NCBI GenBank assembly: GCA_031287715.1 | Contig: JAITSN010000027.1 | Location: 1-32,961 of the forward strand | Origin: Mediterranea sp. (in: CFB group bacteria) | GTDB lineage: Bacteria; Bacteroidota; Bacteroidia; Bacteroidales; Bacteroidaceae | Length of the DNA: 32,961 nucleotides | Direction: 5' to 3' | Shown: piece after piece, positions 6,316 through 32,225 of the stretch | How positions within the stretch are numbered: position 1 is the first letter of the stretch | Layout of the letters: each line of letters begins with the position of its first letter | Program-made: the position numbers and the translations under genes | Notes under the pieces: generated by a model | What the model was told of the DNA's origin: nothing | The model's database searches: none | The model's input: the letters and a program-made list of their open reading frames with translations, nothing else

Positions 6316-6502
6316 CCAACGATACATCCTGCCGAAAACGAACCGCCCGATCCGCTACTACAACTCCCAACAATAAAGGAACTTCGGAAACGCTCCGCCA
6401 AGCGCCATCTTCCGTTGCCGGTTTGGGCCATCCGTTGCAACTCCCCAGCGTATTTGCATCGCAGATGAGGCTGAAAATTTTTCCGAAACGCCATTCTGGG
6501 GC

Positions 6503-6868
6503 TTTTGTGAGGCATTGTCAAACTGCAATGCGCCGTCCGGCCACCGGAAATGACTTTGCAGTTTGACAATGCGGTTTCCGGCCACCGGAAATGACTTTGC
6601 AGTTTGACAATGCGTTTTCCGGCCACCGGAAATGACTTTGCAGTTTGACAATGCGTTTTCCGGCCACCGGAAATGGCTTTGCAGTTTGACAATGCGCCGT
6701 CCGGCCACCGGAAATGGCTTTGCAGTTTGACAATGCGCCGTCCGGCCACCGGAAATGACTTTGCAGTTTGACAATGCGTTTTCCGGCCACCGGAAATGGC
6801 TTTGCAGTTTGACAATGCGTTTTCCGGCCACCGGAAATGGCTTTGCAGTTTGACAATGCCTCACAAAA
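6503..6868. repeat. Array of 41-bp palindromic units closed by 26-bp perfect inverted repeats
   Basis: Eight copies of CCGGCCACCGGAAATG alternate with TTGCAGTTTGACAATGC at a strict 41-bp period. Each unit contains the palindrome TTTCCGG-CCA-CCGGAAA (sometimes CGTCCGG). Units differ only in short blocks (GGTTT, GTTTT or CCGT; GAC or GGC). The first half-unit is reversed, so the outer ends, 6503-6528 and 6843-6868, are perfect 26-bp inverted repeats. Weaker inverted similarity continues for about 20 bases outside them. All frames on the minus strand are open because the unit is free of stops, which explains several long spurious ORFs. There are no unique spacers, so this is not a CRISPR array. 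Confidence 0.9.
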
Positions 6869-6944
6869 GGCTTCAAATGATGTTTTTAAAGAAATAATTA
6901 TCTCTTCGATAAAGAAAATAGGAGATCAAGGTAGCAGGGAATAT

Positions 6945-11533: not shown

Positions 11534-13258
11534 TTAAAGCGGCAGCAGGATGATCCTTACTTGCCCGTCGCCGTTTTGCACGTTGGCTTGCGTGAAGGGA
11601 TTGCTCATCGCCGGCTCCACTACTACGCTGGTACCCGAGCTGCCTTGCTGGCTGTATCCTGTGCCGCCGCTGCCTCCCCTGTGACCGCCGCCTCCGCCGC
11701 CGTGACCCGAATTTGTGGCTTGTCCCCCACTTTGCCCGGTGCCGCCATTGGCTCCCGTGGCTCCGGTCTGACCGCCAGGAAGCGCATTAACCTGCCGGCC
11801 TCCTCCACCACCGCCGCCGGCTATGATGATGCGGGTATCGGCAGTGGAATCCGCGTCTAAGTCTATACCCGCGATGCTTGCGTTTGAGGTTCGTACGTCG
11901 GATGCCGCTCCGCCCGAGCCGCCGCACGGAACAGGCTCATTGAATGCGTTTACTCCGCCAAAGCCGCCATTGCCTCCGCCGGGATTGCTGCCGACGGCGC
12001 CTCTGGTTTTATCGTAGGTATCGACCGCCGCGCTGCCCACACAAATGTACAAGACGTCATCTTTCTTCAGTTCTATTTCGCCCCTGGCATAGTCGCCATT
12101 ACGACCATTACGGCCATAGTTGCTTCCTGTTACATTCCCTCCTCTTCCTCCCCAGGCTTCGATCCGGTATGTTCCGTCTTTGGGCGCGGTGAATGTTTCT
12201 ATCGCGCCGGTGTAGCCGAAGTTCCAGACTATTCCGTCCACGTCTAAGGTGAAATCGTACAGGTAGGATTCGCCGGCCTCCCATTGGCTCGCCGGTAGCG
12301 TTCCTTCGATGGTATAGCCGGTAATATCGTACATCCGGAATTCCACCCGGATCTTGACTGTGCCGGCGGGTATGGTTTGTGGCAACAGGCAGAGCGTACC
12401 CGCCGTTGTGGCAACTTTGTTGTTTTCGGTAGCCGTGGTGCCGGCAATCTTTTTGGCGATTGCATCGGCAACCAACTCGTTCCGGGTGGAAGCCAGCGTG
12501 TAGACGCCCGAACCTTCCGGCGTGCCCCAGCTATACCCGCCGGCGACGAAGCGAAGGGTATTGCTTCCTTTCAGGCCGGAGAGTTCGATGGCGTCTATAC
12601 GGACTTCGGGCGGCAAGTCGTTATAATTATAGATATGCCTTGCCAAGAAGCCCACCTGCGCCATCACGTGGTCGAAGGCGAAGGATACTTTCCCGCCGCC
12701 GTCGCCCGGAGCGCTCCCGTTCGTATCGGCGACTGTGGTGTTCATCACAGGGACTGCCACGCAGAAGTCCACCTGGTCGGAGGGATTCGCCGCAGGCGTT
12801 ACCGTGAAGGCCGGGTAGCCCGCCTGGCTGGCAGTCGTCGCCGTGCTTATGCCGTTCGTGGCCGAAGGCGCAGGGCCGGCGGCAAGGAACGACAGTTTTT
12901 CGTCCGACAAAGGGGAAGGCCAATACCTCACGGGGGAGTAGCTCCATGGTCCGCCGCTCCGTGTCACCGTCTGGTTGTACATGAAGTCGGGCGTAGCTGT
13001 TGATTCGTTCCAGTCGCCCGTGGTTTTGTAACCGAACACGACCATTTCGGAAATGTTGTCTGTGGTGGTGAGGCTATTGCTCACACGCGCAATGCCTCCG
13101 GAAAGCTGCCGGTCGAAAAACACGGGCACATTCTCTTCGCCGAAACCGGAACCCGCGCGGGAACCTTCAGCACATGAAACATATACTAATGCCGTCAATA
13201 CAACGGGCAGCGCTAACAGCAGGAGGCCTGCCATCCTTCCTTTCATTGTCTTTTCCAT
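11534..13258 (-). CDS. Surface lipoprotein: fimbrillin-like domain fused to a glycine-rich domain
   Basis: 574 residues. A lipoprotein signal peptide ends LVYVSC with C29 as the likely acylated cysteine. Residues from about 45 to 345 look like the Mfa-like/fimbrillin family (EMVVFGYKTTGDW, the aromatic SPVRYWPSPLSDEKLSFLAAG, FAFDHVMAQVGF, SYLYDFTLDVDG). The rest is a glycine-rich domain of the ALK/LTK type, opening FGYTGAIETFTAPKDGTYRIEAWG and ending NGDGQVRIILL, with GGGGGGG runs. Fimbrillin-family proteins are exported lipoproteins that polymerise into, or decorate, surface fimbriae. The glycine-rich part could be an adhesive or structural tip; this is inference. The gene stands alone and its promoter lies in a probable invertible segment (13295-13485). 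A second ATG at 13246 is an alternative start. Confidence 0.78.
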   Translation of the reverse strand: MEKTMKGRMAGLLLLALPVVLTALVYVSCAEGSRAGSGFGEENVPVFFDRQLSGGIARVSNSLTTTDNISEMVVFGYKTTGDWNESTATPDFMYNQTVTRSGGPWSYSPVRYWPSPLSDEKLSFLAAGPAPSATNGISTATTASQAGYPAFTVTPAANPSDQVDFCVAVPVMNTTVADTNGSAPGDGGGKVSFAFDHVMAQVGFLARHIYNYNDLPPEVRIDAIELSGLKGSNTLRFVAGGYSWGTPEGSGVYTLASTRNELVADAIAKKIAGTTATENNKVATTAGTLCLLPQTIPAGTVKIRVEFRMYDITGYTIEGTLPASQWEAGESYLYDFTLDVDGIVWNFGYTGAIETFTAPKDGTYRIEAWGGRGGNVTGSNYGRNGRNGDYARGEIELKKDDVLYICVGSAAVDTYDKTRGAVGSNPGGGNGGFGGVNAFNEPVPCGGSGGAASDVRTSNASIAGIDLDADSTADTRIIIAGGGGGGGRQVNALPGGQTGATGANGGTGQSGGQATNSGHGGGGGGHRGGSGGTGYSQQGSSGTSVVVEPAMSNPFTQANVQNGDGQVRIILLPL

Positions 13259-13294: not shown

Positions 13295-13485
13295 AAACGT
13301 TGGTTTAATGACACACAAAAATAACCCTTTTCGCCAACAGTACAAATTCTATAACAACTAATTCTAACGACTGCCCGCAGAATCCCTGCCAATCGACCTT
13401 TCTGTATTCATTCCCCGGTATAAAAAGCAATCTTTCCGGAGGTGTAAGATCATGTCTGCACCTGTGGCTCATTAAACCAACGTTT
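13295..13485. promoter_or_regulatory. Probable invertible promoter segment with 17-bp inverted repeats
   Basis: AAACGTTGGTTTAATGA at 13295-13311 is exactly the reverse complement of TCATTAAACCAACGTTT at 13469-13485. The 157 bp between them contain a perfect Bacteroidales promoter facing the lipoprotein gene. Inverted repeats around a promoter of a surface-protein gene are the hallmark of DNA-inversion phase variation in Bacteroidales. In the present orientation the gene would be ON. No recombinase gene is present in the window, so the invertase would act in trans. Confidence 0.7.
13316..13346 (-). promoter_or_regulatory. Promoter of the fimbrillin-like lipoprotein gene
   Basis: On the minus strand, TTTG (13346-13343) is followed after exactly 19 bp by TATTTTTG (13323-13316), the full -33/-7 consensus. 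Transcription would start around 13309, inside the left inverted repeat, giving an untranslated leader of about 50 bases. Confidence 0.75.
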
Positions 13486-13506
13486 AATGAGCCACCCTGT
13501 TTTTTA
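13464..13506 (+). terminator. Hairpin overlapping the right inverted repeat, possible terminator
   Basis: GTGGCTCATTAAA at 13464-13476 pairs with TTTAATGAGCCAC at 13483-13495 around a CCAACG loop, followed at 13500 by a T-run on the plus strand. It could stop plus-strand transcription entering from the invertible segment before it runs antisense into btuD. On the minus strand there is no T-run, so it is less convincing as the end of the btu operon. Confidence 0.45.
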
Positions 13507-13567: not shown

Positions 13568-14593
13568 CTATCTTGTCGAGCAGCTCACCGCATCCAATAT
13601 GGATTCGATGCTTGCCGTCTTTGTCGTTTTCTCTTGCGGGATATGCAGGATGTAAGGACAGCAGTCGGGTGCGTTGTCTTTTACTTCAATATAAGCATCG
13701 GATGTTATGTCAGGGTTGGCCTTGATTCCGTTTCGCTGAAGCGCTTTGCGCAACATGGCGTATTTTTGGCCTTCGCCGATGAGCCTTATTTCTTTTGTGA
13801 ACACGTTGTCTACGCGGAACAATCCGGTTTCCATGTCGAAAGAAATGCCTTTCCGGGCGAAGGAGTGCCCCAGGCTCCCGTTGAGCGACAGGTCTTCGGG
13901 CGTGCCCACGGTTACGCCATGTTCTTTGTCCATGATCCAGAGCTTGTCGGCGATTTGTAGTGCCAGCTCCAGGTCGTGCGTGGAGAGGAAGATCGTTTTT
14001 CCGGTTTCGCGGCTTAGTTGGTGAAGCAGTTGCATGATCTCGACCTTGCTCGGGAAGTCGAGGAAAGCGGTGGGTTCGTCCAGGAAGATAACGGGCGTTT
14101 CCTGCGCCAGCGCTTTGGCTATCATGACCTTTTGGCGTTCGCCGTCGCTCAGCGTCTGTACCATGCGGTGCGCCAGGTTTTCTATTTTGATCAGCACGAT
14201 GGCGTCGGCAATGATCTTCCTGTCGTTCTTGCGCAGCCCGCCCCAGAACCCGGTGTACGGGCTTCGTCCCAGGCCGATAAGTTCTTCGGCGGTCATGTTG
14301 CGAATATCCGGCCGGTCGGTAAGCACAACGCCAACGATGCGGGAGAGTTGTTTTTCCGTATACGCTTCGATCGGCTTGCCTTGTATGCGGATCTCGCCGC
14401 CCAATTTGGGAAGGAAGGCCGAGAGCGTGCGCAGCAGTGTTGATTTGCCGACCCCGTTGGCGCCTAGCAGGCAGGTGAGTTCGCCGCTGTTGATGTTTGC
14501 ATGGATGCCTCCGGCTACTACTTTTGTTCCTTTCGGGGTGGGATAGCCGATAGTCAGGGACTTGATCTCAATCGTTTTGCTTGCGGCAGGCAT
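13568..14593 (-). CDS. btuD: Vitamin B12 ABC transporter ATP-binding protein BtuD-like
   Basis: ATPase subunit of a cobalamin importer at the inner membrane. Walker A is GANGVGKST (44-52), Q-loop region near 91, signature LSDGERQ (148-154), Walker B VIFLDEP (168-174) and the switch histidine H206. The core ends near residue 250, but the protein runs to 341. The extra 85 or so residues (FRVDNVFTKEIRLIGEGQKYAMLRKAL... to the end) are not part of a standard ABC domain. It follows the permease gene by 15 bp. Substrate assignment rests on the cobalamin riboswitch ahead of the operon; by sequence alone it could serve iron-siderophore import. Confidence 0.88.
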   Translation of the reverse strand: MPAASKTIEIKSLTIGYPTPKGTKVVAGGIHANINSGELTCLLGANGVGKSTLLRTLSAFLPKLGGEIRIQGKPIEAYTEKQLSRIVGVVLTDRPDIRNMTAEELIGLGRSPYTGFWGGLRKNDRKIIADAIVLIKIENLAHRMVQTLSDGERQKVMIAKALAQETPVIFLDEPTAFLDFPSKVEIMQLLHQLSRETGKTIFLSTHDLELALQIADKLWIMDKEHGVTVGTPEDLSLNGSLGHSFARKGISFDMETGLFRVDNVFTKEIRLIGEGQKYAMLRKALQRNGIKANPDITSDAYIEVKDNAPDCCPYILHIPQEKTTKTASIESILDAVSCSTR

Positions 14594-31917: not shown

Positions 31918-32085
31918 CATTTACAATTACCATTTACCATATACCATTTACCATTTAATACCATTTACCATTTACCATTTACCATTTAATACCATTTACC
32001 ATTTACCATTTACGCCGGTATTAAATGGTAAATGGTAAACGGTAAATGGTAAATGAAGAGATGGTAAATGAAGAGATGGTAAATG
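31918..32085. repeat. ACCATTT/AAATGGT inverted repeat 1
   Basis: A run of TACCATTT units (about 31928-32013) is followed by an ACGCCGGTATTAA centre and then the complementary GGTAAATGGTAAA units, ending in two ATGAAGAGATGGTAAATGA blocks. The arms are complementary for several tens of bases. A second, similar inverted repeat follows at 32130-32225. Confidence 0.75.
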
Positions 32086-32122
32086 AAAAAACCCCCTGAA
32101 CAGTTCAAAGACGTTCAGAGGG
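32086..32122 (-). terminator. Terminator of the HU-like gene
   Basis: On the minus strand CCCTCTGAAC (32122-32113) pairs with GTTCAGGG (32101-32094) and is followed by GG and a run of six or more Ts. It lies about 100 bases after the HU stop, between the two inverted repeats. Confidence 0.8.
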
Positions 32123-32129
32123 CCTTAAC

Positions 32130-32225
32130 ATATTTACCATTTACCATTTAATACCATTTACAATTACGCCGGTATTAAACGGTAAATTGTAAACGGTAAA
32201 TGGTAAATGAAGAGATGGTAAATGA
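32130..32225. repeat. ACCATTT/AAATGGT inverted repeat 2
   Basis: The second inverted repeat has the same centre (CGCCGGTATTAA) and the same ATGAAGAGATGGTAAATGA tail as the first, which lies on the other side of the HU terminator. It would form part of the HU 3' untranslated region. Confidence 0.75.

What the first reader, a model, noticed from the sequence alone, without database searches (positions are those of the whole stretch)
13295..13485. Probable invertible promoter driving a fimbrillin-like surface lipoprotein
Two perfect 17-bp inverted repeats (13295-13311 and 13469-13485) enclose a 157-bp segment with a complete Bacteroidales promoter (TTTG, 19 bp, TATTTTTG) pointing at the lipoprotein gene that starts at 13258. 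This matches the architecture of invertible promoters used for phase variation of surface structures in Bacteroidales. As sequenced, the gene is in the ON orientation. From memory, the repeat core AAACGTTGGT resembles the Mpi-type recognition sequence of B. fragilis, but this needs checking. Flipping would direct transcription the other way, towards the 3' end of btuD.
Basis: partly seen in the sequence, partly recalled or inferred. Interest (0 to 1): 0.85.

Follow-up and report, generated by a model that had tools for sequence, protein, structure and literature searches.

The report
Flipping promoter for surface fimbrillin gene
A 157-base stretch between two inverted 17-base repeats carries a predicted promoter pointing at a fimbrillin-like surface-protein gene and likely flips to turn that gene on and off; the same genome holds 15 such paired repeats, predicted to be flipped by one enzyme.

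Summary
The 17-bp inverted repeat, the predicted promoter and the fimbrillin-like gene (PF13149) are at the stated places. The assembly holds 15 such pairs (single-site hits at up to 2 mismatches: 47, backward control 0), 178-190 bp apart between centres, each with a promoter-like sequence at one fixed end; 10 of the 15 lie beside TonB receptors or fimbrillin-like genes. It has one serine recombinase, above NCBIfam's cut-off for the Mpi master invertase. Two related genomes of 158 searched carry 17 and 11 such pairs. Of eight orthologous cassette pairs compared, five (four of six loci) have the promoter in opposite orientations. Both sites of a pair share the central dinucleotide in 42 of 43 pairs over five variants, as expected of serine recombination. 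So this is a new member of a known kind, Mpi-type invertible promoters; inversion itself was not observed and no reads were available. New point: the invertible segments evolve in concert. In 43 of 43 the nearest relative is in the same genome, even where flanking genes are orthologs. Exchange of promoter segments between loci, possibly by the invertase, would explain it; gene conversion is not excluded.

The parts
13295..13311 (+). gene-side recombination site (17-bp repeat; centre TT at 13300-13301)
13469..13485 (-). far-side recombination site (17-bp repeat; centre AA on + strand at 13479-13480)
13312..13468 (.). invertible segment of 157 bp, homologous to 14 others in the assembly
13316..13346 (-). 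predicted promoter TTTG-N19-TATTTTTG, pointing at the fimbrillin-like gene
   Evidence: motif alone weak (3 against 0.68 expected), position conserved in the family
11534..13258 (-). fimbrillin-like gene, 574 aa (PF13149 plus PF12810 glycine-rich domain), predicted lipoprotein by eye; likely target
13464..13495 (+). hairpin around the far-side site, 14 pairs, followed by CCTGTTTTTT; terminator-like
13568..14593 (-). ABC transporter ATPase (btuD/fecE-like) behind the cassette; its 3' end faces it

Best explanation
The 157-bp segment at 13312-13468 carries a predicted promoter between two perfect inverted 17-bp sites and is likely inverted by the one Mpi-family serine recombinase found in this assembly, which would switch the fimbrillin-like gene 11534-13258 between ON (the predicted state as sequenced) and OFF. 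Inferred steps: the enzyme would bind the two sites, cut at the central TT and rejoin after rotation, so that the promoter turns round. In the OFF state the promoter would read towards the 3' end of the btuD-like gene, across a site followed by a T-run that may stop the transcript (suggestive only). Shown: the locus is one of 15 cassettes with the same site in this assembly. Inferred: the same recombinase serves all of them in trans, so that TonB receptors, fimbrillin-like genes and a polysaccharide-export gene phase-vary side by side.
For: 15 inverted site pairs in the assembly, 178-190 bp apart between centres; promoter at the same end in 12 of 15 exactly and in 3 of 15 as CTTG-N20. One serine recombinase in the assembly, Mpi equivalog 282.6 bits against cut-off 272. 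Opposite orientation in 5 of 8 ortholog pairs, 4 of 6 loci. Central dinucleotide identical in 42 of 43 pairs over TT, AT, TA, TC, AA, and all 29 matched pairs with a polar centre are inverted, none direct. Strict paired pattern in 11 of 158 genomes of the genus, control 0; 10 of these 11 have an over-cut-off Mpi against 40 of the other 147, p 4e-5, not corrected for kinship.
Against: No reads: inversion was not seen, and a species is held once only. G131, 60% complete, has 11 pairs but no Mpi match. One pair (G130:C100) has unlike centres. The gene-side outer arm of the window's site (AAAAACG) departs from the palindrome of most cassettes, so its rate could be low. 13 of 43 pairs have self-complementary centres (AT, TA), which carry no direction. 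Seven tyrosine-recombinase matches, six over the cut-off, are also in the assembly.
Confidence: 0.87

Rival explanations
1. The segment inverts, but by a tyrosine recombinase (Tsr type) and not by the Mpi-like serine recombinase.
For: Seven PF00589 matches in the assembly, six over the cut-off; one at C63:28289-28699 lies about 500 bp from a sibling cassette.
Against: No such gene on the window's contig. Near-palindromic sites with a matched central dinucleotide in 42 of 43 pairs fit a two-base serine crossover; cassettes co-occur with Mpi in 10 of 11 genomes.
Confidence: 0.07
2. The cassettes are static: a dispersed palindromic repeat with terminator and promoter functions that no longer inverts.
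For: At least a dozen single sites without partner lie in intergenic places of the assembly, several between convergent or co-directional genes, and look like terminators; the window's far-side site is a hairpin with a T-run.
Against: Opposite orientation at 4 of 6 orthologous loci; matched centres in 42 of 43 pairs; recombinase present.
Confidence: 0.05
3. Chance inverted repeat beside an unrelated promoter-like sequence.
For: The promoter motif alone is not significant in the window.
Against: 15 copies of the pair in the assembly and 0 of the backward pattern.
Confidence: 0.01

Closest known systems
Mpi-regulated invertible promoters of Bacteroides fragilis (13 regions, seven of them capsule promoters; PMC4747536, passages; the primary papers Coyne 2003 and Krinos 2001 seen only as citations)
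   Same: Promoter with the TAnnTTTG -7 element between short inverted repeats; many dispersed loci; one trans-acting serine recombinase of the same NCBIfam equivalog family; repeat core one base from the recalled consensus ARACGTWCGT.
   Different: Predicted targets here are mostly TonB receptors and fimbrillin-like genes, one polysaccharide-export gene and no capsule locus recognised; sites are extended palindromes in most cassettes; interior segments are homologous and homogenised within each genome.
Inverton groups near fimbrillin and TonB/SusD genes in gut communities (PMC11892184, passages)
   Same: Invertible promoters grouped by repeat homology, near fimbrillin and TonB-dependent receptor genes, with the Bacteroides promoter motif.
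   Different: That work shows flipping from reads; here there are none. Whether its repeat groups include this site was not tested.
Tsr tyrosine-recombinase switches of Bacteroides (Tsr19 promoters, Tsr0667 SusC/SusD shufflons; PMC4747536, passages)
   Same: Invertible promoters or genes of surface proteins, SusC/SusD among the targets.
   Different: Different recombinase class; here the site anatomy points to a serine recombinase and no tyrosine recombinase is linked to the window's cassette.

Membership tests
Mpi-regulated invertible promoter | Mpi-family serine recombinase encoded in the genome | tested here: met
   single PF00239 match, NCBIfam Mpi equivalog 282.6 bits over 272
Mpi-regulated invertible promoter | promoter of Bacteroides type between inverted repeats | tested here: met
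   TTTG-N19-TATTTTTG inside the repeats; exact in 12 of 15 cassettes
Mpi-regulated invertible promoter | several dispersed loci sharing one site | tested here: met
   15 pairs in the assembly
Mpi-regulated invertible promoter | site core ARACGTWCGT (recalled) | tested here: inconclusive
   window core differs at one of ten bases; C63:2710 matches exactly; consensus not found in a held paper
Mpi-regulated invertible promoter | both orientations exist | tested here: inconclusive
   opposite orientation in 5 of 8 ortholog pairs across species; not shown for the window's own locus or within one population
Mpi-regulated invertible promoter | Mpi catalyses the inversion | not testable with these tools
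   needs expression of the recombinase
Serine recombinase crossover | both sites share the central dinucleotide | tested here: met
   42 of 43 pairs in three genomes; TT in both sites of the window
Tsr tyrosine-recombinase switch | a tyrosine recombinase linked to the cassette (recalled as common, not strictly required) | tested here: not met
   no PF00589 match on the window's contig; 7 elsewhere, one beside a sibling cassette

The most novel reading that the evidence does not exclude
The invertase does more than flip promoters: it trades them. Because the cassettes of a genome share crossover cores, the recombinase swaps promoter segments between distant genes. The 11-17 switches of a genome therefore evolve as one shared pool of promoters (concerted evolution) under a single trans-acting enzyme, while the genes they control evolve separately.
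Probability: 0.33. Interest if true: 0.75.

Novelty: new member of a known kind. Interest (0 to 1): 0.5.

Why it matters
It adds a lineage in which one predicted master invertase would control at least 15 promoters, mostly of TonB receptors and fimbrillin-like proteins and not of capsules. The within-genome homogenisation of the segments is a testable sign that invertible promoters are exchanged between loci, which would explain how such regulons reach new genes and keep alike promoters.

Tried and rejected
Chance repeat: rejected by the genome-wide family.

Contig joins as a sign of active recombination: C23 and C46 share 118 bp up to the end of a site, but contig C89 ends in the same sequence at both ends, so this is a two-copy inverted repeat and no proof of flipping.

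Terminator logic (a stronger hairpin with a T-run on the OFF side): T-run of 4 or more on the far side in 21 of 28 cassettes, on the gene side in 13 of 28, p 0.054; predicted hairpin energies are lower on the far side in most G130 cassettes but not uniformly. Left as suggestive.

Core compatibility: same-core cassettes are more alike than different-core ones in G130 (0.812 against 0.764, p 0.043) and G131 (0.782 against 0.669, p 0.012), which fits exchange but equally duplication.

Viral contigs: 14 stretches with one exact 17-mer each; not followed.

Choices by hand: the 8 ortholog pairs were recognised by eye and checked by blastn (two other comparisons there, L033/L041 and L034/L187, were not orthologs). 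Targets were chosen by hand for 28 of the 43 cassettes; 10 of the first 38 had no clear target, and the 5 fetched later were not given one. The target of G130:C157 is doubtful, its gene-side flank looks like other cassettes' far side. One search's automatic ON/OFF labels were set aside where short spurious frames intruded (for example C40).

Full report
Observation. The gene 11534-13258 is fimbrillin-like (PF13149, 70.5 bits against cut-off 27) with a glycine-rich ALK/LTK-type domain; its N-terminus looks like a lipoprotein signal by eye.

Genome-wide family. The window is contig 38 of a 2.5-Mb, 84%-complete assembly of 121 contigs. The 17-mer at up to 3 mismatches occurs 59 times against 10 for the backward control, and 47 against 0 at up to 2. 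Thirty sites form 15 inverted pairs, 178-190 bp apart between centres. Each pair has the promoter-like sequence at one fixed end: 12 of 15 exactly TTTG-N19-TAnnTTTG, three CTTG-N20-TAnnTTTG. Predicted targets: six TonB/SusC-type receptors (C3, C9, C23, C48, C79, C83), four fimbrillin-like genes (window, C2, C40, C63:27559), a DUF3575 protein (C118) and a polysaccharide-export gene (C63:2710), and a PAP2-like gene (C46, named by eye). C11 and C104 have no clear target.

Recombinase. The assembly has one PF00239 match, a 199-aa protein at 282.6 bits against the 272-bit cut-off for the Mpi master invertase. Seven PF00589 matches, six over the cut-off, are also there. The nearest named relatives of the enzyme lie in Bacteroides sp. 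51 (78%) and a Mediterranea MAG (79%) among nine loci found; records very near the window's genome may be left out by that tool.

Relatives. Of 158 genomes of the genus, G000 included, a strict paired pattern is found in 11: 15 pairs in G000, 15 in G130, 11 in G131 and one in each of eight others; backward control 0. Two further G130 pairs (C3, C49) miss the strict pattern, giving 17. In 6 of the 8 single-cassette genomes a gene that by eye looks like a fucosyltransferase reads away from the cassette; only 1 of the 8 segments holds an exact match to the promoter pattern. Ten of the 11 cassette genomes have an over-cut-off Mpi against 40 of the other 147, p 4e-5, not corrected for kinship. The exception, G131, is 60% complete.

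Orientation. Blastn of orthologous loci (genes 72-88% identical) shows the gene aligned in one direction and the segment in the other for C48/G130:C3, C3/G130:C77, C3/G131:C110 and, more weakly (72% over 79 bp), C46/G130:C49; the same direction for C23/G130:C34, G130:C108/G131:C99 and G130:C77/G131:C110. C63:2710/G131:C107 differ by promoter end, where blastn gave only site-sized pieces. So 5 of 8 pairs differ, covering 4 of 6 loci. By hand-chosen targets the promoter points at the target in 11 of 13 cassettes in G000, 2 of 11 in G130 and 1 of 4 in G131; G000 against G130 p 0.003. Opposite orientation is thus shown for sibling loci, not for the window's own.

Serine signature. Over 43 pairs in three genomes the centres are TT 27, AT 8, TA 5, TC 1, AA 1, and unlike (TT/AT) in one pair; the next two positions on one side differ in 6 and 2 pairs, and the outermost two of the 16-mer in 5 and 4. 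All 29 matched pairs with a polar centre are inverted. Spacing is 177-180 bp in 10, 186-190 in 32 and 194 in one, peaks about one helical turn apart. The cassettes are related to each other, so these are not 43 independent trials.

Concerted evolution. The interior segments group by species: nearest neighbour in the same genome for 43 of 43, and each species' set on one side of a branch (support 97/89, 96/91, 95/91; with the first 38 rows). Inside the sites, over the 28 cassettes with a target, orthologs average 55-56% identity, no more than unrelated cassettes of two species (54-56%), while same-genome paralogs average 67-69%; from 30 bp outside the sites paralogs fall to 46-51%, the background. 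Against a clean picture: orthologs outside average only 52-60% and stand clearly above background in the C3/C77/C110 trio and, further out, in C63:2710/C107, not in every pair; and the C48/G130:C3 segments (67%) are more alike than the median of C48's own paralogs (63%). The clearest case is G130:C77/G131:C110: gene-side flank 71-80%, inside 49-58%. The cassettes of C3, C77 and C110 lie 131, 136 and 136 bp from their gene starts, so the cassette there is likely ancestral and its segment was replaced. Exchange by the invertase is my inference; RecA gene conversion would stop at the same borders because the flanks are not homologous, and lineage-specific duplication may add to it. The odds of the novel case were set slightly lower (0.33) after this recheck.

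Literature. PMC4747536 (passages): Mpi inverts 13 regions in B. fragilis; TAnnTTTG is the -7 consensus. PMC11892184 (passages): inverton groups near fimbrillin and TonB genes. PMC12632263 and PMC10939037 (passages). Coyne 2003 and Nakayama-Imaohji 2009 are not held. No held paper joins 'concerted evolution', 'invertible' and 'Bacteroides'; one holds 'inverton', 'gene conversion' and 'Bacteroid' (PMC11868660, listing only). These searches cover open papers of one library only.

Verdict. A real and very likely working Mpi-type invertible promoter: ordinary in kind, notable for the size of the family in this clade and for the homogenised segments.

Noticed in passing
L195 (G000:C89 1-128 and 5144-5271), L197 (C46:1-217), L196 (C23:1-118): A repeat that ends at a site: both ends of the clpC-htpG contig C89 match the start of C46 (119 bp identical, inverted), and C46:100-217 equals C23:1-118 up to the site; two cassettes thus share one flank.
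   Followed up: partly
L051 (G000:C93), around 1790-2140: A cassette with one site only: the promoter TTTG-N19-TATATTTG is kept and points at a gene whose G130 counterpart is a serpin (counterpart scanned, the C93 gene only by eye); it may be locked ON.
   Followed up: partly
L059 (G000:C111, sites 2030 and 4984) and L165 (G131:C21, sites 2235 and 4078): Longer site pairs, 2.95 and 1.84 kb apart, between two outward-reading genes that are alike in both genomes; a larger invertible segment that could serve either gene.
   Followed up: no
L036, L043, L046-L049, L052-L054, L056-L058 (G000): Single, unpaired copies of the site palindrome in intergenic places, several between convergent or co-directional genes, often with T-runs: terminator-like.
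   Followed up: partly
L171-L173, L182, L183, L238, L239 (G131): Seven of 11 pairs in G131 have a self-complementary AT centre (and one TA), so their sites carry no direction; deletion as well as inversion would be possible in principle.
   Followed up: no
window 11534-13258: The fimbrillin-like gene and its cassette are absent beside the btuD-like gene in G130, where other genes follow it; the locus looks accessory.
   Followed up: partly
window 6486-6885: A cluster of inverted and direct repeats of about 40 bp (TTTCCGGCCACCGGAAAT...) behind the recQ-like gene.
   Followed up: no
window 31924-32209: Arrays of TACCATT units in both orientations, forming several long inverted repeats.
   Followed up: no
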